Of a stretch of DNA of 64,000 nt, positions 1 to 32,736 are shown one piece after another. Every line of letters begins with the position of its first letter. Within the stretch, counting starts at the first letter, position 1. The notes beneath the pieces are model-generated. The model was not told where the DNA came from. It made no database searches and worked only from the letters and a program-made list of their open reading frames with translations. The translations under genes and the position numbers were made by a program. The DNA comes from Neisseriaceae bacterium ESL0693 (GTDB lineage Bacteria > Pseudomonadota > Gammaproteobacteria > Burkholderiales > Neisseriaceae), in the NCBI GenBank assembly GCA_029433475.1, contig JAQTIE010000005.1:62001-126000 (forward strand), given 5' to 3'.

Positions 1-106
1 GCCAGTCTGACAAGGCAGCATCAAAGACACCAGAAAAGAGATCAGCAGCCAATGCATGACTATGCTGCCTGATGGATATCAGAAACACTCTGAATAAACA
101 AAATAA

Positions 107-140
107 ATCATGGTTAATCCTTTACGGGACTAACCATGAT
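107..140 (-). terminator. Hairpin terminator downstream of the repeat-protein gene
   Basis: An inverted repeat with arms at 107-120 and 127-140 (ATCATGGTTAATCC against GGACTAACCATGAT, one mismatch) has a 6-base loop. It lies about 30 bases past the stop of the minus-strand gene at 170-544. It could also serve a gene ending left of the window. Bases 1-106 show no recognisable gene. Confidence 0.6.
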
Positions 141-169
141 GATTTACTGACCAAGTATATTATTACGTA

Positions 170-544
170 TTATCTGTCGCGATAGAGTCGTTTTCTGTCA
201 TGCCCATCTTTAATGGCACGATCACGAACAATGGCATGAGCCACGGCGCGATCACGAGCCACTTTATGCGCTACAACACGGTCACGGGCAACAGTACTTG
301 CCACCGCACGATCACGGGCAACGGCATGAGCCACAGCGCGATCACGGGCAACGGCATGAGCCACAGCGCGATCACGGGCAACAGCATGGGCGACAGCACG
401 ATCATGCGCAATCGCACGGTCACGAGCCACCGCACGAGCCACCGCACGGTCACGATTGATATCATGCGCCTGTACCGCAGGAATCATACTGATGCTGAGC
501 ATAGCGCCCACAGACAACAGGGTAATGGTTTTACGAAATTGCAT
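170..544 (-). CDS. Secreted protein of 10-residue RDRAVAHAVA tandem repeats
   Basis: I do not recognise this 124-residue protein. Residues 1-26 form a Sec signal peptide with likely cleavage after AVQA. Residues 31-106 are about eight copies of a 10-residue unit, consensus RDRAVAHAVA. One unit is shortened (41-47, RDRAIAH) and the later ones diverge (RDRAVASTVA, RDRVVAHKVA). The tail from residue 107 is basic and ends KRLYRDR. The mature protein is a regular alternation of an Arg-Asp-Arg cluster and an Ala/Val/His strip, strongly cationic and free of cysteine. A strong ribosome binding site (AGGAGGAAAT) precedes the ATG, so expression is likely. A surface or periplasmic polyampholyte, or a binder of nucleic acid or an anionic polymer, is possible, but function is unknown. 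The gene downstream of it in reading order is left of the terminator at 107-140; the gene at 619-1053 lies upstream on the same strand. Confidence 0.75.
   Translation of the reverse strand: MQFRKTITLLSVGAMLSISMIPAVQAHDINRDRAVARAVARDRAIAHDRAVAHAVARDRAVAHAVARDRAVAHAVARDRAVASTVARDRVVAHKVARDRAVAHAIVRDRAIKDGHDRKRLYRDR
227..454 (-). repeat. 30-bp tandem repeat inside the coding region
   Basis: The unit is 30 bp, read on the plus strand as GCGATCACGGGCAACGGCAT followed by GAGCCACAGC. Two copies at 311-370 are virtually identical and the outer copies have diverged. Each unit encodes ten residues, so changes in copy number keep the reading frame. This is the expected structure of a slippage or recombination-prone coding minisatellite. 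Confidence 0.85.
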
Positions 545-618
545 ATTTCCTCCTAATTGTAATTACATTTTAAATAAACATCATATATTTAGCATGCTAA
601 ATATATTTTCCAGCAACA

Positions 619-1053
619 TTAATGATGATGATTGCGATCATGATCATGGTAATGATTATTATCATGATGGTGATTATGACGGCGATAGTGATCATAATCC
701 TGATAACGGCGCCGCTCCTGATCTTTGAGCATGCCCTGATCTACCGCCCGGCGATATGCCTCATAATCACGCTGATTGTCAAACCGGCGGCCACCATAAT
801 AATAGTGATTACGGTAAAAGCCTTCGCGATCATAATCAGGATCACTGTGATTAAGTAAATGACCCAGAAGACCACCAGCCGCCGCCCCGATCAGGGTAGA
901 GCTGAGATTATCACCAATGGCATTACCAGCCACTCCACCAATGGCAGCACCCACCAGAGTACTGCTGGTTTTACTCATGGCCATGGTCAGCGGTGCACTG
1001 ACCAGTAGGCTTGTACCCAATAAAACAGCGAGATAATGGTTGTATTTCATCAT
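619..1053 (-). CDS. Glycine-zipper envelope protein with His-rich C-terminus
   Basis: 144 residues. Residues 1-25 are a signal peptide ending PLTMA. Residues 30-68 hold two Gly/Ala-rich hydrophobic stretches (GAAIGGVAGNAIGD and GAAAGGLLGHLL) typical of glycine-zipper 2TM domains found in small outer-membrane or periplasmic proteins. The middle is Tyr/Arg-rich (residues 74-115). The last 26 residues are dominated by His and Asp (HNHHHDNNHYHDHDRNHHH), a plausible metal-binding tail. A GAAGAAG element precedes the start; a second ATG follows immediately and could be used instead. The gene shares strand with the repeat-protein gene 74 bases downstream, so the two may be co-transcribed. Function is unknown; metal binding is inference from composition only. 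Confidence 0.75.
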   Translation of the reverse strand: MMKYNHYLAVLLGTSLLVSAPLTMAMSKTSSTLVGAAIGGVAGNAIGDNLSSTLIGAAAGGLLGHLLNHSDPDYDREGFYRNHYYYGGRRFDNQRDYEAYRRAVDQGMLKDQERRRYQDYDHYRRHNHHHDNNHYHDHDRNHHH

Positions 1054-1635
1054 AAATCTTCTTCATGGTTACGGATATCATGCGACTATTCAAGGATACA
1101 ACTATTTAATTTTAATCAAAAATAAACATAAAATTAAATCAACTTTTATACATACATCCGTGTATGTTTGTATACTATAATAACGTTAGTTATTTGTAAA
1201 GAGAATGATATAGAAAAGTGGTAACACAATAAAAACATTAAATAAATAAATGTTTGTCCATCATGGATAAACCAAAAGATAAATAAAATGTATAAAAAAA
1301 TCATATTATTATTTATTTTTATGGTTTGGCGTAAATACAACAGATAATAAAGCAATCATAATTATTTATGATTTTCCACTGTTTTTTAGTATTTTATATC
1401 ATGGCAGAAAATAACCATCAGCTGTCAGATAACTGATTACCATCAATCCAGTCAATCAATTGCATCATCAAAAATATCCGCAAAACCCCATAAATCCATC
1501 AGCTTCTGACCGCATTTATAAATATAAAAACAATCACGTATTGATTGCCGCCTACCTTTGATTATTCGTAAGCTTGATGGCTAGATCGATTTAAAACCAT
1601 AAACAAAGAGTGATAATAAACAATCATGAAGTAAC
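1054..1635. other. AT-rich intergenic region, no gene seen
   Basis: Very AT-rich sequence between the glycine-zipper gene and the Sel1-like array. Short open frames exist on the minus strand, but they lack ribosome binding sites and have the Leu/Ile/Phe-rich composition expected of random AT-rich DNA. I see no RNA gene or repeat. Confidence 0.5.
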
Positions 1636-1839
1636 ATGTATCTATGGTCAGTTTTATGTAAAAAAGCCAGTGAAACAGAGATAAAGCAAATATCCGCACT
1701 TCATCGGATCTATAGAAATATAAAGAAGCGAAGAAGAATAAGATCAGGCCATATCCAACAACCATATGAAAGCTTAACGAAAATTACCCGTAACACGACC
1801 TGTAATAATTTATCGAATAAATCAGATATTTATTGCTAA
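1636..1839 (+). pseudogene. Decayed eighth copy of the Sel1-like secreted family
   Basis: The frame contains, in the right order, shortened versions of the family landmarks. VLCKKASETEI resembles EVCEHNYSNREI. RIYRNIKKRRR resembles ILYDIKSMQR. RNTTCNNLSN resembles RQSSCDSTNN of the third array gene. The signal peptide is missing and the A-x-x-GD-x-x-AQLK part of the Sel1 motif appears deleted. Immediately after it comes the same spacer sequence (CAGATATTTATT, then TTGTTATCAG) that separates the intact genes. I infer a degraded first unit of the array. The similarity is weak at residue level, so an alignment is needed. Confidence 0.4.
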
Positions 1840-1897
1840 TTTATTGTTATCAGGAGTATTCTACAGTAAATACCTTATGCATGATAAAGGATTGAAA

Positions 1898-2260
1898 ATG
1901 AAAAGCTATAAATTGATGTTATTGGGTGCGTTGTCTGCTTTATCTATACAGTCCAGCCATGCTGAAATAGTGAGATATGGTGGATGGGTATTAGGATCTG
2001 TTAATTATGTTATTGTCGATGTAGTATGTAAGCATACCTATACCAATGAAGAGATTATGGTATTGGAAAAATCAGCAGATCAAGGAGATAGTCTTGCACA
2101 ACTAAAATTAGGTATATTATATGATATTAAATCAATGCAAAGATATCAGCAGGTACATGAAAATCAAAATGTTAGCAGTAATAGTAAGGAGATAGCACAA
2201 ATTTTGTCAAAACAAAGATCATCGCCCTGTATTCATATTAATAATACTGCTAAAGAATAA
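1898..2260 (+). CDS. Secreted Sel1-like two-cysteine protein, array gene 1
   Basis: 120 residues. Signal peptide 1-22 (KLMLLGALSALSIQSSHA). The mature part has the family pattern: Cys44 in VVCKHTYTNEEI, a single Sel1-like helix pair at about 53-80 (LEKSADQGDSLAQLKLGILY, matching the A-G-AQ-LG-Y Sel1 spacing), then a variable linker and Cys111 in RSSPC. The start is set at the ATG preceded by GATAAAGGATTGAAA, a leader repeated before the other members; the longer frame from 1844 would bury the signal peptide. The mature N-terminus (EIVRYGG) and the last ten residues (CIHINNTAKE) match array gene 7, suggesting recent duplication or gene conversion. The two invariant cysteines probably form a disulfide in the periplasm. 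Function is unknown; a Tli5-like immunity role is one hypothesis. Confidence 0.8.
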   Translation: MKSYKLMLLGALSALSIQSSHAEIVRYGGWVLGSVNYVIVDVVCKHTYTNEEIMVLEKSADQGDSLAQLKLGILYDIKSMQRYQQVHENQNVSSNSKEIAQILSKQRSSPCIHINNTAKE

Positions 2261-2322
2261 AATCTATTGATACGAATGAGTTGATTCAATGCTGTCAGGT
2301 GTAAGCTGACGAAGGAACGATA

Positions 2323-2643
2323 ATGAAACGATATAAGCTGATATTGTGGGTTTTATTGGGTTTTTTAAGTATGGAAAACAGCTATGCCAGAATTTGTTTA
2401 AATACACAATGTGGCTATCTGATCATAATCGATAAAGTCTGTAAACATAACTATAATCCTGAGGAAATTGCCGCATTGGAAGAATCGGCAGATCAAGGCG
2501 ATAGTTATGCCCAATTGGTTTTAGGCATATTATATGATATTAAATCAGTCCAAAGACATGAACAGGCCAGCCATACTTATCGGATAGCAAACTGGTGGCA
2601 TCAACGTAAATCCCCATGTGACCCTACCAATAATGAACCATAA
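2323..2643 (+). CDS. Secreted Sel1-like protein, array gene 2
   Basis: 106 residues, of the second subtype in the array (N-terminus MKRYKLILWVLL). Signal peptide 1-22 ending SYA. It carries the invariant Cys40 (KVCKHNYNPEEI) and Cys99 (RKSPC) plus an extra pair, Cys25 and Cys30, at the mature N-terminus, so two disulfides are possible. The Sel1-like motif lies at about 51-71 (LEESADQGDSYAQLVLGILY). A GAAGGAACGATA element precedes the ATG. The linker before the terminal Cys is shorter than in genes 1, 4 and 7. It sits 62 bases after gene 1 and reads in the same direction as all members. No enzymatic residues are recognisable. Confidence 0.8.
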   Translation: MKRYKLILWVLLGFLSMENSYARICLNTQCGYLIIIDKVCKHNYNPEEIAALEESADQGDSYAQLVLGILYDIKSVQRHEQASHTYRIANWWHQRKSPCDPTNNEP

Positions 2644-2723
2644 TAAAAATCAGATATTTATTTATATATTGCTATTATCAATGGCATTTTTAGCTGAATA
2701 TAATTTCCTGTAAAGGACTGGAA

Positions 2724-3047
2724 ATGAAGCAGTATAAATTAATACTATTAACGGTATTTTATATTTTATGCGTGAATAAAAGTTATTCAGCAGTTTGTTT
2801 TAATTCAGATTGTTTTTATAAAGATATGATCAAGGAAATTTGTGAATATCCGTATAATAATACAGAAATAAATACACTGGAGAAACTTGCTAATGAAGGA
2901 GATATTAATGCCCAGCTAAAACTAGCTATATTTTATGATATTAAGTCGGTTCAGAAATACCAAGAAGTGCTTAATCATAGTTGTGGACTAGAAAAACTCT
3001 GGGAAAAACGTCAATCATCTTGTGATTCTACGAATAATAATCTGTAA
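2724..3047 (+). CDS. Secreted Sel1-like protein, array gene 3
   Basis: 107 residues; closest to array gene 2 in layout. Signal peptide 1-22 (LILLTVFYILCVNKSYS). Cysteines at 25, 30, 40, 87 and 100; 40 and 100 are the invariant pair, 25 and 30 are shared with gene 2, and 87 is private. The Sel1-like part is LEKLANEGDINAQLKLAIFY at about 52-71, with Ala in place of the Gly of LG. A GTAAAGGACTGGAA leader precedes the ATG. Spacer sequence on both sides resembles that between other members, so the gene-plus-spacer is the duplicated unit. Confidence 0.8.
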   Translation: MKQYKLILLTVFYILCVNKSYSAVCFNSDCFYKDMIKEICEYPYNNTEINTLEKLANEGDINAQLKLAIFYDIKSVQKYQEVLNHSCGLEKLWEKRQSSCDSTNNNL

Positions 3048-3128
3048 GCAAAAGCAGATATTTATTTCTATAATTGTTGTTATCAGTGTTATTTTTCCTA
3101 AGTGTAATTACCTGATAAAGGATTGGAA

Positions 3129-3506
3129 ATGAGAAGCCATAAATTGATGTTATTGGGTGTGTTGTTTGCTTTGTTTATGCAATTCAGTTATGCGAAAGTA
3201 TATATAATATCTGAAATGGTATCCGGGCCGATTAAATATGATGTTGTTAAAGAGGTGTGTGAACATAATTATAGTAATAAAGAAATTAGAGCATTGGAGA
3301 AAGCGGCAGATCGGGGAAACAGTCTAGCCCAATTGAAATTGGGTATATTATATGACATCAGATCAATGCAAAGATATCAGCAAGTACGCGAAAATCAAAG
3401 CATAAATAATAATAGTGTACGATATGAAGATAAAAGAGTAGCGAGGGTTTTAGCAAAACAAAGATCATCACCTTGTACTTTGACTAAAAATACAGTAATA
3501 AAATAA
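3129..3506 (+). CDS. Secreted Sel1-like protein, array gene 4
   Basis: 125 residues, the longest member. Start placed at the ATG at 3129, directly after GATAAAGGATTGGAA; an in-frame TTG two codons upstream falls inside that ribosome binding region. Signal peptide 1-22 (LMLLGVLFALFMQFSYA). Cys44 (EVCEHNYSNKEI), Sel1-like segment at about 56-75 (LEKAADRGNSLAQLKLGILY), Cys116 (RSSPC). The linker has an insertion (RYEDKRVARVL) shared in part with gene 7 (HYKDKILTFVL). First-subtype N-terminus MRSHKLMLLGVL is identical in genes 4, 5 and 7, which points to recent copying of the 5' part. Confidence 0.8.
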   Translation: MRSHKLMLLGVLFALFMQFSYAKVYIISEMVSGPIKYDVVKEVCEHNYSNKEIRALEKAADRGNSLAQLKLGILYDIRSMQRYQQVRENQSINNNSVRYEDKRVARVLAKQRSSPCTLTKNTVIK

Positions 3507-3578
3507 TATATTTATTTCTATATTTTTGTTATAAATGGTATTCTTTACTAGATGCTATGACCTGATAAAGGATTAGAA

Positions 3579-3926
3579 ATGAGAAGCCATAAATTGATGT
3601 TATTGGGTGTGTTGTCTGTTTTATATATACCATTCAGCTGTGCTGAAATAGTGAGAATATCTCAATTTATTTATACAGGAAAAGATGCTGGTCTCATCAG
3701 AGAAGTATGTAGAGATAAGTATACTGACCAAGATATTCATATGTTAAAGAAATTGGCCAGTAAAGGCGATGATGAAGCACTTTTAAAACTGGGCATATTT
3801 TATGACATGAAATCAATCCAGCTGTATCAGCAAGTGGAGAAAAATAATGACGCATCTGTAGCAGCTCTATTAAAAACGCGGCATTATCCTTGCACTTATA
3901 TTTTACATAATGAATATTTTCAGTAA
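3579..3926 (+). CDS. Secreted Sel1-like protein, array gene 5 (most diverged)
   Basis: 115 residues. Signal peptide 1-22 (LMLLGVLSVLYIPFSCA), with an extra Cys inside the signal region. Mature start EIVRISQFIYTG. Invariant Cys44 (EVCRDKYTDQDI) and Cys105 (HYPC). The Sel1-like segment LKKLASKGDDEALLKLGIFY at about 56-75 has lost the Gln of AQ. The C-terminus (TYILHNEYFQ) differs from every other member. The leader GATAAAGGATTAGAA is the same as before genes 4 and 7. The combination of a nearly identical 5' end and a divergent 3' part suggests mosaic evolution. Confidence 0.8.
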   Translation: MRSHKLMLLGVLSVLYIPFSCAEIVRISQFIYTGKDAGLIREVCRDKYTDQDIHMLKKLASKGDDEALLKLGIFYDMKSIQLYQQVEKNNDASVAALLKTRHYPCTYILHNEYFQ

Positions 3927-3993
3927 TATGATATAAAATATCTGAATATGAATATTCTAAACAGCTTATGTTTTATTTATGGAGGATCGAAAA

Positions 3994-4335
3994 ATGAGAA
4001 AATATAAATTAATATTATTAACGGTATTCTATATTTTAGGCTTAGGGCAAAGTTTAGCTCAAGACAGTTATATTGAAATGATGTCTAAAGTGATTAATGA
4101 AAAAGCAGACAGCCATGTGATCAGAGAAGTTTGTGAACATAAATACAGTAATAGAGAAATCAATAAACTAGAGAAATTGGCTAATGGGGGAGATAATAAT
4201 GCTCAATTAAAACTGGGAATTATTTATGATATTAAAGCACGGCAAATATATAGGCAGATATGGCGGAAAAATGATAATTTCGATGTGCCAAGCTTGTATT
4301 CAGGCCGAGAATCACCTTGCGATTTTATCAATTAA
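3994..4335 (+). CDS. Secreted Sel1-like protein, array gene 6
   Basis: 113 residues, second subtype (MRKYKLILLTVFYIL, very close to gene 3). The start is placed at 3994 because a GGAGG ribosome binding site lies just upstream at about 3980; the longer frame from 3979 would translate that site. Signal peptide 1-23 ending SLAQ or SLA. Cys47 (EVCEHKYSNREI), Sel1-like segment at about 59-78 (LEKLANGGDNNAQLKLGIIY), Cys109 (RESPC). A longer linker precedes the first Cys (MSKVINEKADSHVI). Confidence 0.8.
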   Translation: MRKYKLILLTVFYILGLGQSLAQDSYIEMMSKVINEKADSHVIREVCEHKYSNREINKLEKLANGGDNNAQLKLGIIYDIKARQIYRQIWRKNDNFDVPSLYSGRESPCDFIN

Positions 4336-4411
4336 AATAATAATTTCCTGATAAAATATTGTTATATTAAGTATTATGTACTGGATACAATGATCAGATA
4401 AAGGATTAGAA

Positions 4412-4786
4412 ATGAGAAGCCATAAATTGATGTTATTGGGTGTGTTGTCTGCTTTATATATACAGTCCAGCCATGCTGAAATAGTGAGATATGGTGGGCT
4501 GACATATGGACCAATTGATTACAGTGTTGTCAAAGAAGTGTGTGAACATAATTACAGTAATAGAGAGATCAGGAAATTAGAAAAAGCAGCAGAGCGGGGA
4601 GACACTTCGGCGCAATTAAAATTGGGTATATTGTATGATATTAAATCGATGCAAAAATATCAGCAATTAATTGATCAGAGAATAGAAGGTAATAGTGTAC
4701 ATTACAAAGATAAAATATTAACGTTTGTTTTGACAAAACACAGATCATCACCTTGTATTCATATCAATAATACCGCTAAAGAATAA
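4412..4786 (+). CDS. Secreted Sel1-like protein, array gene 7
   Basis: 124 residues, last intact member. Signal peptide 1-22 (LMLLGVLSALYIQSSHA). Mature start EIVRYGGLTYGPIDY. Cys44 (EVCEHNYSNREI), Sel1-like segment at about 56-75 (LEKAAERGDTSAQLKLGILY), Cys115 (RSSPC), and the same ten-residue tail as gene 1. The 5' part matches genes 4 and 5, and the ends match gene 1, so it looks like a chimera of the outer and inner members. A hairpin terminator follows at 4862-4894. Confidence 0.8.
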   Translation: MRSHKLMLLGVLSALYIQSSHAEIVRYGGLTYGPIDYSVVKEVCEHNYSNREIRKLEKAAERGDTSAQLKLGILYDIKSMQKYQQLIDQRIEGNSVHYKDKILTFVLTKHRSSPCIHINNTAKE

Positions 4787-4861
4787 AGTATTACTATAAT
4801 AAAATACAAAGAATTATTGTTACACTAAAACAATTGCTTTTAATAATTTACTTTTTTGAAA

Positions 4862-4894
4862 AAGGTAATAAATACAATATATATTTATTACCTT
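4862..4894. terminator. Bidirectional terminator between the array and the 379-residue gene
   Basis: A perfect 13-bp inverted repeat, AAGGTAATAAATA at 4862-4874 and TATTTATTACCTT at 4882-4894, has a 7-base loop. It sits between two converging genes and has A/T runs on both sides. Confidence 0.65.
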
Positions 4895-4941
4895 AGTTGA
4901 TTAATTTACATATAAATTGATTTTTTATAAATAAACCTTAG

Positions 4942-6081
4942 TTATTTTTGAGGTTTTTGTTTGGGCATGAAATGATTGTCTGGATAATGTTCCCCTTTTT
5001 TCAAGGTATAACGGAAATTTCCTTTACTCACCTGAATATCACCATTGGATTGTAAAATTACTTCCTGATGAACAGTCCCCAGACTTTTCCATTTCTCTGG
5101 AGTACCTTCAGGTTTGACCAAACTCCACTCAATCGGTATATCTACAATCATGCTGCCGCCCTGACCAATATCGACGTTAGGATCATTATCTCCACCACCC
5201 ACGGTATCGTATCCAATTGATATATTTGTATTATTTCCAATATCTTGAAATTTCAATTTTTCACCGGCACCAGTACATTGGCCATTAGTAATGGGGTGTC
5301 CTTGAATATGACAATGGATTTGATTCATAGCAAAATAACCTGTATCTCTTGAAGCACAATTTATTTCTCGTATCTGTACCTTACTAAAATTAACTGATTT
5401 CGGCAGTAATTTCATGCTTAATCCCACTGCGCCATTATAGCCATTTTTCGGATGATAGATCAGCGGGTTGCTGTCATCTGGTCTTTCTAATTCAGGATAA
5501 TCCTGATACTTCCCCATGCTAAATTGCAAGCCTTTCGGCTCTACGATCATGAATTTGATACTGGAGCGAAAGGTTTTGTCTTTTTCGGTATAAAAGGCGT
5601 TGACGGTGCAGGTGCCGCCCTGATCGCTGGCGGCAATCCACAGTTCTTTACTGTCTTGTCTGACAATGCTGGCCAGTTTGTTGTTGAGCTGCCATGTAAC
5701 CGCTTTGTCGGCGTAGATTCTGACTACTTCACCTACGCCGATATTGGTGCGCGAACGTGGCGTCGGCAGCATGGCTTCGGTTTCCGAGGTAAGCTGAATT
5801 TCTCCTTCAACATAGTCGGTCATGGCGTAGTAGTAATCAAATCCCGACAGAATGGAATCAGGGTCGTCTCCGGCAAAAACGGCGCCTCTGTTGATGACAC
5901 ACATATCATTGTCTTCAGATACGGTAATAAATTCGCCTTTGTTGGCGCTGCAATGATCCATCGGTTCCATGCCGCCTAATTCAGACAAGGGCAGGTATCT
6001 GCTGCCTGAAGGGGATAAACCATAAAGTCTGATGACTTGGTTGTCTTTGCGGTGTTGTTTGGGTTTGTCGTTTTTAGCCAT
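4942..6081 (-). CDS. Orphan 379-residue protein, two-part composition, possible secreted-effector partner
   Basis: I cannot name this family. There is no signal peptide or membrane segment. The N-terminus is basic and polar (MAKNDKPKQHRKDNQ). Residues about 108-190 look like an Ig-like beta domain (PTPRSRTNIGVGEVVRIY, then VTWQLNN, then TCTVNAFY). The second half (about 195-379) is beta-rich with LLPKSVNFSKVQIRE, DTGYF, MIVDIPIEWSL and a terminal QVSKGNFRYTLKKG. From memory, this sequence style occurs in proteins linked to contractile-injection or polymorphic-toxin loci; that is a weak impression. The DNA for residues 1-175 is clearly GC-richer than that for the second half, as in proteins whose C-terminal module has been exchanged. 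A strong GGAGATGG site precedes the ATG. It converges on the Sel1-like array across a shared terminator. The pairing of an exchangeable cytosolic protein with a bank of small periplasmic proteins would fit effector and immunity, but no toxin domain is recognisable. Confidence 0.7.
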   Translation of the reverse strand: MAKNDKPKQHRKDNQVIRLYGLSPSGSRYLPLSELGGMEPMDHCSANKGEFITVSEDNDMCVINRGAVFAGDDPDSILSGFDYYYAMTDYVEGEIQLTSETEAMLPTPRSRTNIGVGEVVRIYADKAVTWQLNNKLASIVRQDSKELWIAASDQGGTCTVNAFYTEKDKTFRSSIKFMIVEPKGLQFSMGKYQDYPELERPDDSNPLIYHPKNGYNGAVGLSMKLLPKSVNFSKVQIREINCASRDTGYFAMNQIHCHIQGHPITNGQCTGAGEKLKFQDIGNNTNISIGYDTVGGGDNDPNVDIGQGGSMIVDIPIEWSLVKPEGTPEKWKSLGTVHQEVILQSNGDIQVSKGNFRYTLKKGEHYPDNHFMPKQKPQK

Positions 6082-6376
6082 TTGCTGCCATCTCCATAAA
6101 ATTAATTAATTAATGGTCATCTCTTGTGTGTCCGCTGGGGTTAGATCAGGGCAACGGACAATAAAGAGACATCGCTGGATCAGATACCCGCTTCAGGCAG
6201 GATTCGGACAACAATGGATAAAGTTTAGTGCATGCGTGAATGGGTATGATTCTGATATTTTTAGTATATATTAATTGTGTTTTAATTAATAGACGTAAAA
6301 ATTGTCATAGTGATGTGATGAATAGGGCGATTTTTGCTAATGCAGGCGTAATGTTGATCAGGCTGGAAATAAACAT
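6082..6376. other. Intergenic region upstream of the 379-residue gene
   Basis: No gene is seen. Bases just upstream of the start at 6081 include a run of TTAAT repeats (about 6099-6113) that could melt easily in a promoter. No clear -35/-10 pair is assigned. Confidence 0.4.
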
Positions 6377-6428
6377 AAATCACAACCCCGGGCAGATGGT
6401 TTGATGCATTTACCCGGGGTTGTGATTT
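6377..6428 (-). terminator. Strong terminator of ychF
   Basis: A perfect 16-bp inverted repeat, AAATCACAACCCCGGG at 6377-6392 and its complement at 6413-6428, has a 20-base loop. It starts 15 bases past the ychF stop. Confidence 0.75.
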
Positions 6429-6443
6429 TAGGCTGATAAGAAA

Positions 6444-8863: not shown

Positions 8864-10411
8864 ATGGCCAGAAAACCAAAAGAAACCAAAACAGAACCTT
8901 TAGAAGTGATTCTATGGAAGGCAGCAGACAAGCTGCGCAAAAACATTGATGCCGCCGAATACAAACATGTGGTAATGGGTCTGATTTTTCTAAAATATAT
9001 TTCTGATTCTTTCGAATTTCACCATGCTCTGCTTAGCATAGGAGAAGGCGAATTTGCCGATGCAGACCCCGAAGACAAAGACGAATATCTCGCATACAAC
9101 ATCTTTTTTGTGCCAGAACAGGCACGATGGGCATATCTGACAGGCAAAGCGAAATTGCCGGAAATCGGGCGGCTGGTAGACGATGCCATGGAACTGATTG
9201 AAGCTGACAACCCGCAATTAAAAGGCGTATTGCCCAAAGTTTATGCGCGACAAAACCTTGATGCCACCGTATTGGGTGAGCTAATCGACCTGATTGGCAA
9301 TATTGCCTTGGGCGATGCCAAAGCACGTTCTGCCGATGTATTAGGCCATGTGTTTGAATATTTTCTGGGCGAGTTTGCTCTGGCGGAAGGCAAACAGGGC
9401 GGCCAGTTTTACACTCCAAAATCCATTGTTGATTTGCTGGTGAATATGCTTGAGCCTTATGAAGGCCGTGTGTTTGACCCTTGCTGCGGTTCCGGCGGCA
9501 TGTTTGTGCAATCCGAACAATTTGTGAAAGCACATCAGGGCAATATTCAAAATATTTCCATTTACGGGCAAGAATCCAACCAAACCACTTGGCGTCTAGC
9601 AAAAATGAACCTTGCTATTCGTGGCATCAATTCGCAATACGTCATGTGGAACAGCGAAGGATCGTTTTTAAACGATGCGCATAAAGATTTAAAAGCAGAT
9701 TTTATCCTTGCTAATCCACCATTTAATGTTTCGGATTGGTCGGGAGAACAACTGCGCGGTGATGGTCGCTGGCGTTATGGCACGCCACCCGCTGGCAATG
9801 CCAATTTTGCCTGGATGCAGCATTTTCTCTATCACTTGTCACCAAAAGGCCAAGCAGGTGTAGTGCTGGCCAAAGGTGCGCTAACTTCGAAAAGCTCCGG
9901 CGAAGGCGATATTCGCGCCGCGCTAGTGAAAGACGCCAATGTAATTGATTGTATCGTCAACTTACCTGCAAAACTGTTTCTCAATACCCAGATTCCGGCG
10001 GCATTGTGGTTTATGCGCCGCGACAGGGAAAACAGCAAAACCTATCGCGACCGCAGCCAAGAAATCCTGTTTATTGACGCACGCAATCTCGGCCATTTAA
10101 TCAATCGGCGCAGCAAAGTGTTGTCTGCAGAAGATATCCATACCATCGCTGATACCTACCATCAATGGCGCAATCCAAACGGCAATTATCAGGACATAGC
10201 CGGTTTCTGCGCTTCGGTGAACATCAGCGAAGTGGCCAAACTGGATTATGTGCTCACCCCTGGACGCTATGTCGGATTGGCTGATGAAGAAGACGATTTC
10301 GACTTTAACCAACGCTTTAACGCACTCAAAGCCGAGTTTGCCGCACAATTAGCAGAAGAAGAGCGGCTCAATCAGGCGATTAAGGAAAATCTGGCGAAGG
10401 TGGTGGTATGA
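8864..10411 (+). CDS. hsdM: Type I restriction-modification DNA methyltransferase subunit
   Basis: 515 residues. HsdM methylates adenine N6 in the site chosen by HsdS, as M2S1, and protects host DNA. The N-terminal helical domain starts near residue 13 (LEVILWKAADKLRKNIDAAE). The S-adenosylmethionine motif I is FDPCCGSGGMF at about 204-214, and the amino-methylase motif IV is ANPPF at about 283-287. Length matches the 500-520 expected. The first gene of an operon whose next gene overlaps it by four bases (ATGA), implying translational coupling with hsdS. No frameshift or missing motif, so it should be active. Confidence 0.97.
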   Translation: MARKPKETKTEPLEVILWKAADKLRKNIDAAEYKHVVMGLIFLKYISDSFEFHHALLSIGEGEFADADPEDKDEYLAYNIFFVPEQARWAYLTGKAKLPEIGRLVDDAMELIEADNPQLKGVLPKVYARQNLDATVLGELIDLIGNIALGDAKARSADVLGHVFEYFLGEFALAEGKQGGQFYTPKSIVDLLVNMLEPYEGRVFDPCCGSGGMFVQSEQFVKAHQGNIQNISIYGQESNQTTWRLAKMNLAIRGINSQYVMWNSEGSFLNDAHKDLKADFILANPPFNVSDWSGEQLRGDGRWRYGTPPAGNANFAWMQHFLYHLSPKGQAGVVLAKGALTSKSSGEGDIRAALVKDANVIDCIVNLPAKLFLNTQIPAALWFMRRDRENSKTYRDRSQEILFIDARNLGHLINRRSKVLSAEDIHTIADTYHQWRNPNGNYQDIAGFCASVNISEVAKLDYVLTPGRYVGLADEEDDFDFNQRFNALKAEFAAQLAEEERLNQAIKENLAKVVV

Positions 10412-11586
10412 GTGAGTGGTCTATTCAATTATTAAGTAGTCTCATCGTAATTAATGCACATTCTATAGGTAAAGATTGGCAATATGAAAATTGCCTTTAT
10501 CTTGACACAGGCTCAATTACAAGAGGAATAATTAGCTCTATTCAAAATATAAAAAAAGAAAATTTTCCTAGTCGAGCCAAGCGTTTAGTCAAAAATTTAG
10601 ATATAGTTTATTCTCTTGTTCGACCTAATCAAGAACATTATGGTTTAATAATTTCACCACCTAAAAATATGGTAGTATCTACTGGATTTGCAATCCTATC
10701 AGCGAATAAGAATAAAATAAATCCATACTTTCTATATCATTGGCTAACTCAATCTGAGATAACTGAATTGTTACATTCAATTGCTGAAGGATCTACGTCC
10801 ACTTATCCTTCTTTAAAGCCAGAAGATTTAGGTGCTTTAAAAATAAATTTACCCCCTCTCTCTGAACAAAAAGCCATTGCAGACGTTCTGTCTTCGCTTG
10901 ATGATAAAATAGACTTGCTGCATCGCCAGAATAAAACGCTTGAAGCCATGGCTGAAACACTGTTTAGGCAGTGGTTTATTGAAGAAGCACAAGAAGATTG
11001 GGCTAAGGGAATTTTAAAGGATGAATTCTACTTTGTAATGGGACAATCACCATCAGGAATTTCCTTTAATGAGGATAATATAGGAATTCCTATGTATCAA
11101 GGAAATGCTGATTTTGGTTTTCGCTTTCCTTCAAAAAGAGTTTTTACAACAAAACCAACTAGGTTTGCTGAACCATTAGATACACTTATAAGTGTGAGAG
11201 CTCCGGTAGGCGCACAAAATATGGCTTTTGAAAAATGCTGTATAGGCAGGGGATTATCAGCCTTTCGATATAAACCTAACCCAGAGTTTTATACTTATAC
11301 ATATTTTAAACTTAGGCAATTAATGACTGAAATAAGATGTTTTAATGATGAAGGAACAGTTTTTGGCTCAATCAGTAAATCAGATTTTGAAAAAATAAAA
11401 ATAGTTATTCCTTCTTACAAGCAAATTTCTTATTTTGAAAATATAGCAAAACCTATTAATGATAAAGTTATAAAAAACTGTTATCAAATATCTATCCTAG
11501 AATCCCTCCGCGACACCCTGTTGCCTAAATTGATGAGTGGAGAGGTACGGGTTCGATATACTACAGAAGCAGGCGAATCGGCGTAG
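10408..11586 (+). CDS. hsdS: Type I restriction-modification specificity subunit
   Basis: 392 residues. HsdS holds the two target-recognition domains (TRDs) that read the two halves of a split site. TRD1 spans about 1-150, followed by the conserved central helix (LPPLSEQKAIADVLSSLDDKIDLLHRQ split here as residues about 150-177) and LEAMAETLFRQWF. TRD2 spans about 198-360 and includes VMGQSPSG and ISVRAPVGAQN. The terminal conserved helix ends LRDTLLPKLMSGEV. DNA for the two TRDs is clearly more AT-rich than the conserved helices and than hsdM, the usual mark of swapped recognition domains. The target sequence cannot be predicted from the protein by eye. Confidence 0.95.
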   Translation: MSEWSIQLLSSLIVINAHSIGKDWQYENCLYLDTGSITRGIISSIQNIKKENFPSRAKRLVKNLDIVYSLVRPNQEHYGLIISPPKNMVVSTGFAILSANKNKINPYFLYHWLTQSEITELLHSIAEGSTSTYPSLKPEDLGALKINLPPLSEQKAIADVLSSLDDKIDLLHRQNKTLEAMAETLFRQWFIEEAQEDWAKGILKDEFYFVMGQSPSGISFNEDNIGIPMYQGNADFGFRFPSKRVFTTKPTRFAEPLDTLISVRAPVGAQNMAFEKCCIGRGLSAFRYKPNPEFYTYTYFKLRQLMTEIRCFNDEGTVFGSISKSDFEKIKIVIPSYKQISYFENIAKPINDKVIKNCYQISILESLRDTLLPKLMSGEVRVRYTTEAGESA

Positions 11587-11648
11587 TACTAAGAAAATAA
11601 CAAAGTGATATTACCCCCTGTTATTCAACCACAATGAAGGACTGAAGT

Positions 11649-14600
11649 ATGGCAAAGATAACCGAATCCGATATTGAAGTGATGACGATTGAACAACTGC
11701 AAGAGTTGGGCTATGAGTGTATTTACGGTCCAGATATAGAGCCAAGCAGTATTGAACCATTGCGCAGTTATCAACAAGTCATTTTAGCCGACACCGTGCG
11801 GGCTGCACTGCAACGCTTAAACCCTCATCTCAACCCACAGCAATGCGAAGAGGCGTTTAAAACGCTGACACAAATCAATTCGCCTGATTTAATGGCCAAT
11901 AATCTCGCTTTTCATCGTTTGTTGACCGAAGGCATTCATATTGAGGTGAACAAACAGGGCAATACACAGGGAGAATTGGCTTGGCTGATTGATTTTAACG
12001 ATCCAAATAATAATCAATTTCTGGTGGTCAACCAAGTAACCATTCGTGAAAATCGTCACGAACGCCGCCCTGATTTGATTCTGTTTATTAATGGCCTGCC
12101 TTTGGTGGTGATTGAATTAAAAAATGCGGTGGATGAAAACGCCACAATAAAAAAGGCTTTCGATCAAATACAAACCTATCAAGCTGAAATACCGAGCTTA
12201 TTTACCTACAATGCATTTAATGTGATTTCAGATGGGCTGGAAGCCAAAGCAGGCACAATTTCTGCTGATTTAAACCGCTATATGGCGTGGAAAACCGCCA
12301 ACGGACGAACAGCCGCCACCAAGACGCAGCCGCAGTTGCTGGTACTGGTTCAGGGCTTATTCAATCCCGTTACCTTACTGGATATGATTCGCCATTTTAT
12401 GGTGTTTGAAAACAGCAAGCATCAGGACAAAAATGGCGTAGTGAGCATTCGTACGGTCAAAAAAATGGCCGCTTATCATCAATATTACGCCGTGAATGCT
12501 GCGGTGTTGTCTACCATTCGCGCGGCGGCGGTGAATACTGATGTATCCTCGGCTGAAGTGGTGTTGCGTCAGCAGGAGCGTGATAGTAGTAAGCTGGTTG
12601 ATGAACAGAGAATCGGCGACCACAAAGCAGGTGTGGTATGGCATACCCAAGGATCGGGGAAATCGCTGTCAATGGTGTTTTATACCGGGAAAATTGTGCT
12701 GACACTAAATAATCCCACTGTAGTGGTAATTACTGACCGGAACGATTTGGATGACCAATTATTCGGTACTTTTTCTGGTGCTACACAACTATTGCGCCAA
12801 ACGCCAGTACAAGCAGAAAGCCGAGAAGATTTGCAAAAATTGCTGAATGTGGCTTCCGGCGGCGTGGTGTTTACCACTATCCAGAAATTTCAACCGGAAG
12901 ATGGCAGCAGTATTTATAAACAATTATCAGATCGCAGCAATATTGTGGTGATTGCCGATGAGGCGCACCGCTCACAATATGGCTTTGTGGCCAAAGAAGT
13001 GGATGTCAAAGGCCACAATAACCAAGTAACCGGAAAACGCACGGTTTATGGTTTTGCCAAGTACCTGCGCGATGCTTTGCCCAATGCCACTTATTTGGGG
13101 TTTACCGGCACACCGATCGAAAAAACAGACGTCAATACACCGATCGTGTTCGGGCATTATGTTGATATTTACGATATTTCTCAAGCAGTAGAAGATGGCG
13201 CCACAGTGCGTATTTTCTATGAAAGCCGTTTGGCAAAAATAGCCATTAGTGAAGAAGGCAAAGAGCTAATTAAAGCGTTTGATGAAGAGTTTAACGAGGA
13301 CGAACTCACACAGACGCAGAAAGAACGCGCCAAATGGACACATATTGAAGCGCTGATTGGCAATTCACAACGCATTAAAGCGATTGCCGCTGATATCGTC
13401 AAACACTTTATGCTTCGACTGGAAGCCAATGCTCAGCATGGCAAAGGCATGATTGTGACCATGTCGCGCCGCATTGCAGCCGAACTGTATCGGGAAATTG
13501 TTGCACTCAGGCCAGAGTGGCACAGTGATGATATTCATGACGGAGTGATTAAGGTGGTAATGACGTCTTCTGCCGCCGATGGGCCGGAAATCGCCAAACA
13601 CCATACCACTAAGGCACAAAGGCAGACGCTAGCTAAGCGGATGAAAGACGATGACGACAAACTCAAGTTGGTGATTGTGCGGGATATGTGGCTCACCGGC
13701 TTTGATGCGCCATCTATGCATACGCTGTATATCGACAAGCCGATGAAAGGCCATAATCTGATGCAGGCTATTGCACGAGTGAATCGGGTAGATGGCGATA
13801 AAACTGGTGGATTGGTGGTTGACTATCTTGGTATTGCTTCAGATTTAAAAGCTGCGTTGGCATTTTATGCGACAGCGGGTGGCAAAGGCGATCCTGCCGA
13901 AATTCAAGATAAAGCGGTAACGCTGATGCAAGAAAAGCTGGAAATTCTTCAGGATATGATGCACGGCTACGATTACCACACCTATTTCACCGCCACCACA
14001 GCGCAAAGACTGAATATTATTTTAGATGCGGAAAACCATATTCTGGGATTGGATAATGGCAAAGCCAAACCACGTTTTCTGGTAGCGGTGTTGGCATTGT
14101 CACAGGCCTTTGCACTGGCCACACCCCATGAAAAGGCAATGGCCGCTGCCCCAGAAGTGGCTTTTTTTCAGGCTGTGAAAGCACGGCTGAATAAATTTTC
14201 CGAATCAGTAACTGGCTCGGCCGAATTAAATGATAATGGTTTGTCCATACGGGTAAAACAGACCATAGACCAAGCGCTGGTTACCGATAAAGTAGTGGAT
14301 ATTTTTGATGCGGCAGGCATCAAAAAGCCTGATATCTCTGTGTTATCCGACGAATTTATGCAGGAAATGAAGGATTATCAACATAAAAATATTGCGCTAG
14401 AAACATTGAAAAAATTATTGGCTGATGAAATTACCGTCCGTTCCAATCAAAGCATTACCCAAGGTAAAAAGCTCATGGATATGCTCTCTTCCGCTATCCG
14501 AGGTTATCAAAACAAACTATTGACAGCGGCAGAAGTGATTGATGAGTTGATACACATATCGAAAACCATCCGCGAATCAGACAATCTGGCCAAAGAGCTT

Positions 14601-14891
14601 AATTTAAGCACTGATGAATATGCTTTTTATTCCGCGGTGGCCGATAATAACAGCGCGCAAGAACTGATCGGAAAAGCAAAACTACGCGAATTGGCTATCG
14701 CGCTAACAGAGTCCATACGCAATAATGTCAGCTTGGATTGGACTATTAAAGCCGATGCCAGAGCAAAAATCCGCGTGGTAGTTAAACGCTTGCTGAAAAA
14801 ATACGGTTATCCGCCCGATATGTCGCTGCTGGCAACGGAAACCGTTTTAAAACAAGCCGAACAACTGGCTGGTGGATTAAGCAATCAGTGA
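11649..14891 (+). CDS. hsdR: Type I restriction endonuclease, translocase and nuclease subunit
   Basis: 1080 residues. HsdR joins HsdM2S to translocate DNA by ATP hydrolysis and cut unmodified DNA. The PD-(D/E)xK nuclease is near residues 140-160 (RPDLILF, then VVIELKN). The superfamily-2 motor has Walker A HTQGSGKS at about 332, Walker B IADEAHRSQYG at about 434, motif III FTGTPIE at about 484 and motif VI QAIARVNRVDGDK at about 706. The C-terminal helical region, for docking to the methylase, runs from about 870. It starts 62 bases after hsdS with AAGGACTGAAGT before the ATG. All key motifs are present. Confidence 0.97.
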   Translation: MAKITESDIEVMTIEQLQELGYECIYGPDIEPSSIEPLRSYQQVILADTVRAALQRLNPHLNPQQCEEAFKTLTQINSPDLMANNLAFHRLLTEGIHIEVNKQGNTQGELAWLIDFNDPNNNQFLVVNQVTIRENRHERRPDLILFINGLPLVVIELKNAVDENATIKKAFDQIQTYQAEIPSLFTYNAFNVISDGLEAKAGTISADLNRYMAWKTANGRTAATKTQPQLLVLVQGLFNPVTLLDMIRHFMVFENSKHQDKNGVVSIRTVKKMAAYHQYYAVNAAVLSTIRAAAVNTDVSSAEVVLRQQERDSSKLVDEQRIGDHKAGVVWHTQGSGKSLSMVFYTGKIVLTLNNPTVVVITDRNDLDDQLFGTFSGATQLLRQTPVQAESREDLQKLLNVASGGVVFTTIQKFQPEDGSSIYKQLSDRSNIVVIADEAHRSQYGFVAKEVDVKGHNNQVTGKRTVYGFAKYLRDALPNATYLGFTGTPIEKTDVNTPIVFGHYVDIYDISQAVEDGATVRIFYESRLAKIAISEEGKELIKAFDEEFNEDELTQTQKERAKWTHIEALIGNSQRIKAIAADIVKHFMLRLEANAQHGKGMIVTMSRRIAAELYREIVALRPEWHSDDIHDGVIKVVMTSSAADGPEIAKHHTTKAQRQTLAKRMKDDDDKLKLVIVRDMWLTGFDAPSMHTLYIDKPMKGHNLMQAIARVNRVDGDKTGGLVVDYLGIASDLKAALAFYATAGGKGDPAEIQDKAVTLMQEKLEILQDMMHGYDYHTYFTATTAQRLNIILDAENHILGLDNGKAKPRFLVAVLALSQAFALATPHEKAMAAAPEVAFFQAVKARLNKFSESVTGSAELNDNGLSIRVKQTIDQALVTDKVVDIFDAAGIKKPDISVLSDEFMQEMKDYQHKNIALETLKKLLADEITVRSNQSITQGKKLMDMLSSAIRGYQNKLLTAAEVIDELIHISKTIRESDNLAKELNLSTDEYAFYSAVADNNSAQELIGKAKLRELAIALTESIRNNVSLDWTIKADARAKIRVVVKRLLKKYGYPPDMSLLATETVLKQAEQLAGGLSNQ

Positions 14892-29379: not shown

Positions 29380-29892
29380 GATTATCTGGCTGAGCAATGA
29401 CTGATAACAGGATTAATGTGATCTCATCTGGAGAAAATCCAACAATATGTTTTTATCATTAATATGCGAATATTACCACACAGATTGAATGTTTCAGCGC
29501 GCGATTATTCAATAAAAAATGTCATTATTCAGATGACCGCAGCAAAGCATATACTTTATCCGAAAATGACATCAGCAATAAAAATATGAAGTTACAATAA
29601 AATGAAGTGTTGAAAAAGTACAACACTTTATATATATATGGCATATATGGCTTTTTGCTAAAATTAAGAATAGTTTATTGATTTAATTAAATAAAAATTG
29701 AATTTTATTGCAATAATTCTGGCAGCTGTCCAAACCAAGTGTTGTGTATTTACAAATGAGTTTGTTTTTTTGCAACTGAAGCATTATATTGATAACCATG
29801 AAATCGCTGATGCGGCGATTAATGCAAAACTTTAAGAGCTCTACCAAAGGTTTTTGAAGTTTGTTTTTTCGACACAGAAAAGGAATACAGCA
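29380..29892 (+). promoter_or_regulatory. Upstream region of porin 1
   Basis: About 510 AT-rich bases without a gene. The last 140 bases contain TTGCAA and TATATT elements (about 29770-29795), but spacing is poor, so no promoter is assigned. This leader is unlike those of porins 2 and 3. Confidence 0.35.
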
Positions 29893-31026
29893 ATGAAAAA
29901 AACCCTGATTGCTTTGGCTTTGACCACTTTGCCAGTTGCCGCTATGGCTGAAGTTGTTTTATATGGTCAGATGAAAGCCGGCTATGAAGTTTCTTCTACC
30001 AAAACCGACGGTGCTGATCGTGGTCCTTACCAGAATGGTATCGCTGATTACGGTTCACGTATCGGCTTCAAAGGTTATGAAGTATTGCCTAACACCAATG
30101 GCCTGAAAGCCATCTGGCAGGTTGAATCTGGTATCCATCTGGGTAACAGCGATGGTCAGGGCGATGGCTGGGCTAACCGTGATTCATTCATTGGTTTGCA
30201 GTCTGATACTCTGGGTACCATCCGTGCTGGTCGTTTGAGCAACAACATCAATGCCAACATGGATACTGTAGATACTTGGGAATACAATAATGCTGCCTTG
30301 GGTCTGGGTAAACTGACCCGTACCGATGCGCGTTATGTAGGTATCGCCTATGATTCTCCAACCTGGGCTGGTTTCAATTTCAACGTATTGTACTCACCAC
30401 GTGATAACGTAAATGGTAATGACCGTCAAGGTGAATACGATACCGGTATCGGTTCTGGCGAAAAATACAGCGTTGGTTTGAACTATGAAAATTCAGGCTT
30501 CTTCGCTAAATACGGTTTTGATTACCTGAAAAATTCAGCAGTTCGTGATGCTGTGGTAAATCTTGATGGTTCCATTTCTGGTGACTATAAAGATGGTCAG
30601 GTTCACCGTGTGGAAGGTGGCTATGATGCCAACAACCTGTTTGTTGGTGTGGCTTACCAATACACCAAAAATACCAGCTCTTACGTAACTGGTATCAATG
30701 ACTACTCACATAAAGTGATCGGTGATCACAAACTGGGTTTAGATAACAAAGGCCAGGAAGCTGCCTTAACCGTTGGTTATCATTTCGGTAACATCTTCCC
30801 GAAAATCTCCTATGCTCATGGCTGGGACGCTAAAGTTGAAGGCGAAAAAGTGGGCAACACCAAATACGATCAGGTTGTGTTAGGTGCTGACTACGACTTC
30901 TCTAAACGTACCACTGCCAATGTACAGGCTGGTTGGTTGCGTGAAGGTAATGGTGCTGATTTGACTAACGACAGCGGCAAAACCAAAACCACCGCTTTCG
31001 GTGTTGGTCTGAAACACACATTCTAA
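29893..31026 (+). CDS. Trimeric beta-barrel porin, copy 1
   Basis: 377 residues from the ATG at 29893 (AAGGAATACAGCA before it; the longer frame from 29854 would disrupt the signal peptide). General diffusion porin of the Neisseria/Burkholderia Gram-negative porin family, 16-stranded, outer membrane. Signal peptide 1-19 ending VAAMA; mature start EVVLYGQMKAGYE; terminal aromatic residue Phe (VGLKHTF) for BAM recognition. The barrel strands are nearly identical among the three copies, for instance GAVLR-like IRAGRLSNN and YSVGLNYENSG, while differences cluster in putative surface loops (about 175-190, 215-235, 260-285). Own terminator. Confidence 0.95.
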   Translation: MKKTLIALALTTLPVAAMAEVVLYGQMKAGYEVSSTKTDGADRGPYQNGIADYGSRIGFKGYEVLPNTNGLKAIWQVESGIHLGNSDGQGDGWANRDSFIGLQSDTLGTIRAGRLSNNINANMDTVDTWEYNNAALGLGKLTRTDARYVGIAYDSPTWAGFNFNVLYSPRDNVNGNDRQGEYDTGIGSGEKYSVGLNYENSGFFAKYGFDYLKNSAVRDAVVNLDGSISGDYKDGQVHRVEGGYDANNLFVGVAYQYTKNTSSYVTGINDYSHKVIGDHKLGLDNKGQEAALTVGYHFGNIFPKISYAHGWDAKVEGEKVGNTKYDQVVLGADYDFSKRTTANVQAGWLREGNGADLTNDSGKTKTTAFGVGLKHTF

Positions 31027-31052
31027 TTCCGGTTAATCCGCTTAGTTTGATT

Positions 31053-31077
31053 AAAAACCCGCTTTGGCGGGTTTTTT
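31053..31077 (+). terminator. Terminator of porin 1
   Basis: Stem AAAAACCCGC (31053-31062) and GCGGGTTTTT (31067-31076), loop TTTG, T run. Confidence 0.9.
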
Positions 31078-31290
31078 GTTGTGTATCGTCTCACCCTCAT
31101 GCTGGAATAAATGAACTGAATGAAGATTTTATGTTGCTTTTATACCACAAGAATAATAACAGAGTTGTTATTTTATAAATAACTCATTATATTTGCATCT
31201 TGCAAAATCTTTATGAAAAGACAACATAACTTTAAATAGATTTCCTGCTTTTAAAATTTGTTTTTAACATGTGAATAAGGAAATACAGTA

Positions 31291-32469: not shown

Positions 32470-32494
32470 TTTTGTCTGATTTGCTTAGTTTGAT

Positions 32495-32522
32495 CAAAAA
32501 ACCCGCTTTTAGCGGGTTTTTT
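32495..32522 (+). terminator. Terminator of porin 2
   Basis: Stem AAAAAACCCGCT against AGCGGGTTTTTT with loop TTT or TTTT; closely related to the porin 1 terminator. Confidence 0.9.
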
Positions 32523-32736
32523 GTTGTGTATTGTCTCACCATCATGCAGGAATAAATGAGCCAGATGAATATTTTGTGTTGCTTTTCTACCACAATAATA
32601 ATGACAGAGTTGTTATTTCATAAATAACCCATTATATTTACCCCTTGCAAAATTGTCATAAACATACAGCATAAACTTTAAAGAGATTTCCTGCTTTTAA
32701 AGTTTGTTTTTAACACAAAAATAAGGAAGCACAGTA

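What the first reader, a model, noticed from the sequence alone, without database searches (positions are those of the whole stretch)
1898..4786. Bank of seven tandem secreted Sel1-like, two-cysteine proteins
Seens directly: seven consecutive same-strand genes each encode a signal peptide, one Sel1-like motif (A-x-x-GD-x-x-AQLKLGIxYDIKS) and two invariant cysteines (VCxxxYxxxEI and a terminal SPC). Knowledge: tandem periplasmic Sel1-repeat proteins serve as immunity proteins of type VI phospholipase effectors (Tli5 with PldA/PldB). Inference: this may be a bank of immunity or decoy proteins, or a host-facing secreted family. A single Sel1 unit with a disulfide is smaller than described immunity proteins, so the family may be new.
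Basis: partly seen in the sequence, partly recalled or inferred. Interest (0 to 1): 0.8.

Follow-up and report, generated by a model that had tools for sequence, protein, structure and literature searches.

The report
Seven tandem secreted one-repeat Sel1-like proteins
A bacterium carries a row of seven related small exported proteins, built around one helical Sel1-type hairpin with two fixed cysteines, beside an unknown protein that may be a weapon they guard against; the arrangement resembles known tandem families, but this family was found only in a small group and its job is untested.

Summary
The seven genes are real: window 1898-4786, + strand, each with a ribosome-binding site, a signal-peptide-like start, one Sel1-like helix-GD-helix unit and two invariant cysteines. 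A profile of the seven finds Sel1 proteins among solved structures and in other genomes, although no member reaches any Pfam model. Outside this genome the only specific relatives found are two decayed copies in sister species. The BIG/two-Cys pair recurs at a second chromosomal site in a sister genome, where BIG's N-terminus is partly shared by a nearby lipase, as for a delivered protein. That favours an effector-linked, poly-immunity-like bank. Against it: both sisters with intact BIG lack any intact two-Cys gene, yet BIG stays under purifying selection. The rival is a SlrV/Msf-like envelope or host-facing tandem Sel1 family. New variant of a known kind; mechanism about 0.36 likely.

The parts
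1898..2260 (+). two-Cys Sel1-like secreted protein g1 (120 aa)
   Evidence: ATG 1898 with AAAGG site
2323..2643 (+). g2 (106 aa), extra Cys at residues 25 and 30
2724..3047 (+). g3 (107 aa), extra mature Cys at 25, 30, 87
3129..3506 (+). g4 (125 aa)
   Evidence: ATG 3129 preferred over the TTG at 3123
3579..3926 (+). g5 (115 aa)
3994..4335 (+). g6 (113 aa)
   Evidence: ATG 3994 preferred over 3979 (GGAGG site lies before 3994)
4412..4786 (+). g7 (124 aa)
4942..6081 (-). BIG, 379 aa, no signal peptide by inspection, candidate partner, tail-to-tail with the bank (155 nt between the two ORFs)
1..6443 (.). interval between tyrS-like (183 nt upstream of the window) and engD/ychF-like genes: 6.6 kb here; at most about 0.53 kb in 11 of 12 sister genomes read, 1.6 kb in the twelfth (G077)
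   Evidence: gene names recalled

Best explanation
The seven proteins are exported to the periplasm, where each folds as a small helical protein around one Sel1-type hairpin. The two invariant cysteines probably clip the segment before the hairpin to the C-terminal tail. The conserved hairpin is a scaffold; the fast-changing segment after the signal peptide (residues 23-37) and the tail would carry partner specificity. The row of divergent copies works like a homogeneous poly-immunity bank against variants of the linked BIG protein, which would be delivered into neighbours' periplasm, perhaps by the type VI system also present in this genome. Shown: seven intact exported-type genes, Sel1 likeness, linkage to BIG at two chromosomal sites, purifying selection on the core, and a shared N-terminal segment on the sisters' BIG and a lipase. 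Inferred: the disulfide, periplasmic residence, binding to BIG, toxicity of BIG, delivery route.
For: Linkage: two-Cys sequences (intact or decayed) were found in 3 of 14 genus genomes. In G000 and G076 they lie tail-to-tail with BIG, within about 0.2 kb. In G070 the decayed copy lies, same orientation, in the ppsA-ctpA interval that holds BIG in G076 and G071. The sites differ (tyrS-engD in G000; ppsA-ctpA in sisters), and G000's own ppsA-ctpA interval is about 0.5 kb with no BIG, lipase or two-Cys match, so the pair stayed together in two places. Decayed copies: nhmmer E 8.4e-17 and 2e-16; no hit at E 10 on 17 reversed loci nor at E 1 on 27 reversed loci. The first ~42 residues of the G071/G076 BIG are partly shared (48-57% with a gap; E 1e-4 to 5e-7) by the lipase in the same interval in G069, G071 and G076, while lipase relatives in G068, G072 and G073 start differently and follow Rhs-type ORFs (label recalled): N-terminal swapping as in delivered polymorphic proteins. 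T6SS TssK is present in 12 of 14 genus genomes, G000 included. A distant BIG relative in G148 is followed by a 211-aa signal-bearing ORF, and that genome has TssK. Paralogue dN/dS medians: core 0.17, segment 23-37 about 1.15, tail 0.61. Precedents seen in passages or abstract.
Against: In 2 of 2 sister genomes with intact BIG (G071, G076) no intact two-Cys gene was found, yet BIG keeps dN/dS 0.17-0.26; for S. alvi Rhs toxins, a toxin without its immunity gene was never seen (passage of PMC5727410). The pair is convergent, not effector-then-immunity on one strand. By genome counts, intact BIG is not significantly associated with either TssK type (Fisher p 0.21 each), nor two-Cys with the T6SS-2-like type (p 0.21) or with intact BIG (p 0.093; 0.18 with the G069 fragment counted). 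The window's own BIG gave no match to the lipase start. BIG has no recognised domain and its model is useless (pLDDT 36). The ORF lists showed me no VgrG or PAAR gene beside it, but those families were not searched for.
Confidence: 0.36

Rival explanations
1. A lineage-specific envelope or host-facing family of secreted Sel1-like proteins, like H. influenzae SlrV/Msf or Helicobacter Hcp: tandem, variable in copy number, changing fast at exposed segments, unrelated to any toxin; the BIG neighbour is a fellow passenger of a variable island.
For: SlrV genes are secreted-type, mostly tandem at a non-core locus, 0-5 copies per strain, nearly all with a conserved C-terminal Cys pair and with a fully conserved Tyr in the repeat (passages of PMC4792463); the present bank is also at a variable locus between core genes, AT-rich (31.5% GC against 43.8% for the window), with variable N-segment and tail.
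Against: The SlrV proteins described in the passages have 2, 4 or 5 repeats and both cysteines in the C-terminus, whereas here there is one unit and the cysteines flank it; the BIG linkage recurs at two sites.
Confidence: 0.33
2. A partner module without toxicity: two-Cys proteins are periplasmic adaptors, receptors or folding partners of an exported BIG protein, not immunity proteins.
For: Conserved convergent pairing at two sites; BIG conserved without toxin-like features and retained where the two-Cys gene decayed.
Against: Does not explain amplification to seven divergent copies; BIG persists without an intact partner.
Confidence: 0.16
3. Decoy or gene-dosage expansion with no distinct roles: tandem copies on the way to decay.
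For: Single copies decayed in G070 and G076.
Against: All 7 of 7 copies are intact with own ribosome sites; 14 of 21 pairs have dS above 1 (3 more undefined) with dN/dS below 0.55 in every defined pair, so the copies are old and kept.
Confidence: 0.07

Closest known systems
H. influenzae SlrV/Msf tandem secreted Sel1-like genes (PMC4792463; passages seen)
   Same: signal peptide, Sel1-like unit with conserved Tyr, tandem same-locus paralogues, variable copy number, conserved Cys pair
   Different: 2, 4 or 5 repeats per protein in the passages, both Cys in the C-terminal motif; no BIG neighbour mentioned in the passages seen
Tli5b immunity proteins of PldB (P. aeruginosa)
   Different: cognate effector is the phospholipase PldB; here no phospholipase was seen nearby and each protein has one unit
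Klebsiella Sel1 genes by vgrG4, Sel1D and Sel1E (PMC7108748; passages seen)
   Same: five Sel1-repeat genes by a T6SS effector, one member (Sel1E) neutralising, another (Sel1D) not
   Different: larger proteins (residues 230 and 251 of Sel1E are discussed), localisation inconclusive there; effector is a VgrG
Poly-immunity loci (PMC3482391, passages) and esaG/tsaI strings (PMC9484751, abstract)
   Same: tandem non-identical paralogues of one immunity type
   Different: immunity proteins there are described as nearly all cytoplasmic (PMC3482391); toxins known or predicted by domain

Membership tests
Sel1-like repeat proteins (Pfam PF08238) | match to the Pfam Sel1 model at its gathering score | tested here: not met
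   0 of 7 proteins list Sel1 even at E 1
Sel1-like repeat proteins (Pfam PF08238) | profile-level similarity to known Sel1 proteins | tested here: met
   10 PDB sequences at E up to 1, 7 of them named Sel1; best 7.4e-10, but summed over many repeats: in the three alignments shown the best single stretch has E 0.37. In one search, 10 hit ORFs checked of 31 rows that are neither own-genome nor decayed copies: 10 of 10 are Sel1 (ORFs picked by Sel1-like motif count in 12 loci, a biased pick; 7 of 10 lengths equal one search's, 3 are shorter)
Sel1-like repeat proteins (Pfam PF08238) | antiparallel helical hairpins | tested here: met
   AlphaFold helices 50-61 and 65-90, block pLDDT 85-97 over residues 41-80, mean 68; that they pack antiparallel was not measured
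Sel1-like repeat proteins (Pfam PF08238) | two or more tandem repeat units per protein | tested here: not met
   one unit in each of 7
Sel1-like repeat proteins (Pfam PF08238) | fold match to a solved Sel1 structure | tested here: inconclusive
Tli5-type T6SS immunity proteins | neighbouring HKD phospholipase effector | tested here: not met
   by motif only: no H-x-K-x4-D ORF beside the bank; one hit in a 1670-aa ORF over 100 kb away
Tli5-type T6SS immunity proteins | neutralises a cognate effector in the periplasm | not testable with these tools
   needs co-expression
SlrV/Msf family | secreted, tandem, variable copy number at a non-core locus | tested here: met
   between species only, one genome per species
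SlrV/Msf family | several Sel1 units and a C-terminal motif with two Cys | tested here: not met
   one unit; one Cys before it, one near the C-terminus
Homogeneous poly-immunity locus | tandem paralogues of one immunity family that neutralise toxins | tested here: inconclusive
   tandem paralogues met; linked gene BIG is not shown to be a toxin

The most novel reading that the evidence does not exclude
The bank is a poly-immunity array of a new, minimal, disulfide-clipped one-hairpin Sel1 type, guarding the periplasm against allelic variants of a new class of delivered effector (BIG), possibly cargo of the bee-gut symbionts' second type VI system, whose effectors were called unidentified in the 2017 paper seen here in passages (PMC5727410).
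Probability: 0.2. Interest if true: 0.68.

Novelty: new variant of a known kind. Interest (0 to 1): 0.42.

Why it matters
If the proteins neutralise BIG, this names both an effector class and its immunity family where the 2017 paper seen in passages named none, and shows how small a Sel1-type immunity protein can be. If they are host-facing, it adds a lineage-specific tandem Sel1 family in a probable gut symbiont, comparable with SlrV/Msf.

Tried and rejected
Pfam and NCBIfam scans of the seven and of BIG, and PHROGs of g2, g7 and BIG, gave nothing usable; the weak Pfam/NCBIfam matches lie far below curated cut-offs, and g2/g7 touched one PHROG of unknown function at E 0.04-0.07. BIG alone folded at pLDDT 36 and was not used for fold search. 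Foldseek and VIA-align on the two-Cys model gave no informative match. Viral contigs held no relative of either family, nor plasmids of BIG or its G148 relative; plasmids were not searched with the two-Cys family, phage records and PADLOC not at all. The genome-contig scan gave one locus matching only the Sel1-like core (27 residues, 48%), which the DNA profile also touched weakly (E 0.0009). BIG profile in 369 class genomes: own genome only; BIG in 399 order genomes: own and G148; both sets are samples. G148's family: besides itself two short hits in 297 genomes, judged chance. The N-terminal BIG segment in the genus: 6 places that are BIG or the lipase, plus 5 weak ones (E above 0.1) judged chance. 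Promoter-like sites 33 against 25.7 (sd 5.0) in shuffles, terminators 3 against 2.3: not informative. A Klebsiella paper reports a Sel1-domain protein toxic to E. coli as a putative T6SS effector (passages of PMC12469244); I did not adopt an effector role for the bank because all seven have signal-peptide-like starts. Rejected: 'chance repeats'; 'recent identical duplicates'.

Organism: no tool named it. That it is a Snodgrassella-like bee-gut symbiont (Neisseriaceae) is my inference from genome size, genus/family make-up, two TssK types and Rhs-type ORF rows. The names engD/ychF, tyrS, ppsA, ctpA, Rhs and porin are recalled from sequence, not from a call.

Caveats: dN/dS by Nei-Gojobori on 7 divergent copies; 14 of 21 whole-gene pairs have dS above 1 and 3 are undefined; regional medians use the 14-16 of 21 pairs with defined dS. 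The A1 search covered 83 family genomes, one per species, so strain-level copy number is unknown. G074 (60% complete) had no engD match; ctpA was not found within 9 kb of ppsA in G077, and the G069 contig ends before it. Papers: only search listings, abstracts or passages were seen, none whole.

Full report
Observation. Seven consecutive + strand ORFs at 1898-4786 encode 106-125 aa proteins with 40-66% identity to the last one. Each has a ribosome site, a positively charged start, a hydrophobic stretch and a permissible cut site after residue 22 by simple rules. Twenty-one columns are invariant, including the two cysteines. Two members have additional cysteines. A search of the 2.23 Mb own genome with g7 at E 10 gave 7 matches, all here.

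Sel1 likeness. No Pfam or NCBIfam model is met. A profile of the seven nevertheless picks out Sel1 proteins among PDB chains: 10 sequences at E up to 1, 7 of them named Sel1, best 7.4e-10. These are sums over many repeats; in the three alignments shown, the best single stretch has E 0.37. The matches lie mostly within columns 50-76, i.e. the second helix of one Sel1 unit, the G-D turn and the first helix of the next. In 83 family genomes 34 rows outside the own genome were listed; three are the decayed copies below, and of the other 31, 10 ORFs were checked and 10 are Sel1 proteins with 4-14 stretches (picked in 12 loci by counting a Sel1-like motif, so a biased pick; 7 of the 10 lengths equal those, 3 are shorter). 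AlphaFold gives helices 38-45, 50-61, 65-90 and 98-109, with pLDDT 85-97 in blocks 41-80 and 68 overall. Fold searches matched no Sel1 structure. The unit is single.

Distribution. One search also found damaged places in two sister genomes, G076 and G070. DNA profile search supported both (E 8.4e-17, 2e-16; no hit on 17 reversed loci). Of 14 genus genomes, one has seven intact copies, two have one decayed copy each, and in eleven none was found at the thresholds used (G074 is 60% complete).

Neighbour. The bank faces, tail to tail, BIG (379 aa, 4942-6081, - strand; 155 nt between the ORFs). Intact homologues (52-53%) occur in G071 and G076, and a 106-residue match in G069. In G076 the decayed two-Cys copy lies tail-to-tail with BIG, between ppsA-like and ctpA-like genes. 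In G070 the decayed copy lies in the same interval without BIG. In G000 that interval is about 0.5 kb with no BIG, lipase or two-Cys match, whereas its tyrS-engD interval is 6.6 kb, against at most about 0.53 kb in 11 of 12 sisters read and 1.6 kb in G077. So the pair has been kept together at two sites; independent events number two at most, because G070 and G076 share the site.

What BIG may be. It lacks a signal peptide by inspection and has no family match. The first residues of the G071/G076 BIG reappear, with a gap, at the start of a lipase (family I type by recall; 4.6e-106 to Lipase C12) in the same interval in G069, G071 and G076; the window's own BIG gave no such match. Lipase relatives in G068, G072 and G073 lack that start and lie after Rhs-type ORFs. 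This N-terminal sharing suggests a delivery tag, an inference. A distant relative in G148 (27% over the alignment) lies between a 246-aa ORF and a 211-aa signal-bearing ORF on the same strand; that genome has TssK. TssK is present in 12 of 14 genus genomes, but the association with BIG is not significant.

Selection. Among the seven, median dN/dS is 0.17 in the core, 0.42 in the signal peptide, 0.61 in the tail and 1.15 in segment 23-37 (saturation caveat). BIG is at 0.17-0.26, including 0.26 between G071 and G076, in which no intact two-Cys gene was found. The last result speaks against BIG being a self-toxic effector that needs this family for immunity; for S. alvi Rhs toxins the authors never saw a toxin without its immunity gene (passage of PMC5727410).

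Mechanism and verdict. I commit, weakly (0.36), to a poly-immunity-like bank: exported one-hairpin scaffolds with variable flanking segments that bind variants of BIG in the periplasm. A SlrV/Msf-like envelope or host-facing family is nearly as likely (0.33), resting on a closely similar published arrangement (passages of PMC4792463). A search of the held library for papers with both Snodgrassella and Sel1 gave none; this does not show that the family is undescribed under another name. Not a member of Tli5 (no phospholipase seen nearby) nor of SlrV as described in the passages (one unit, different Cys positions); it may still work like either.

Noticed in passing
window 170-544 (-) and 619-1053 (-): Two further small exported-type genes in the same variable interval: an RDRAVA-repeat protein and a glycine-zipper, His-rich protein (glycine-zipper Pfam matches); G077 has a glycine-zipper relative (53% over 132 aa) in its tyrS-engD interval (L128 549-1130).
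   Followed up: partly
window 60170-60694 and 60876-61397 (+): Second pair of neighbouring secreted-type paralogues, 46% identical over 164 aa.
   Followed up: partly
window 29854-33894 (+): Three tandem porin-like paralogues (label recalled).
   Followed up: no
L059 4779-4925: In G076 a second copy of part of the ctpA-like 3' end lies between the lipase and BIG, as if the lipase came in by recombination.
   Followed up: no
L060 10312-10560 (-): 82-aa ORF between BIG and the lipase in G071 that looks like a phage tail-fibre-assembly fragment (recalled likeness).
   Followed up: no
L091 373-4816 (-): Three neighbouring ~380-405 aa paralogue-like ORFs with a hydrophobic N-terminal stretch in the own genome, some 20 kb from the TssK gene.
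   Followed up: no
window 8864-14891 (+): Type I restriction-modification-like operon (M, S, R) next to engD (label recalled).
   Followed up: no
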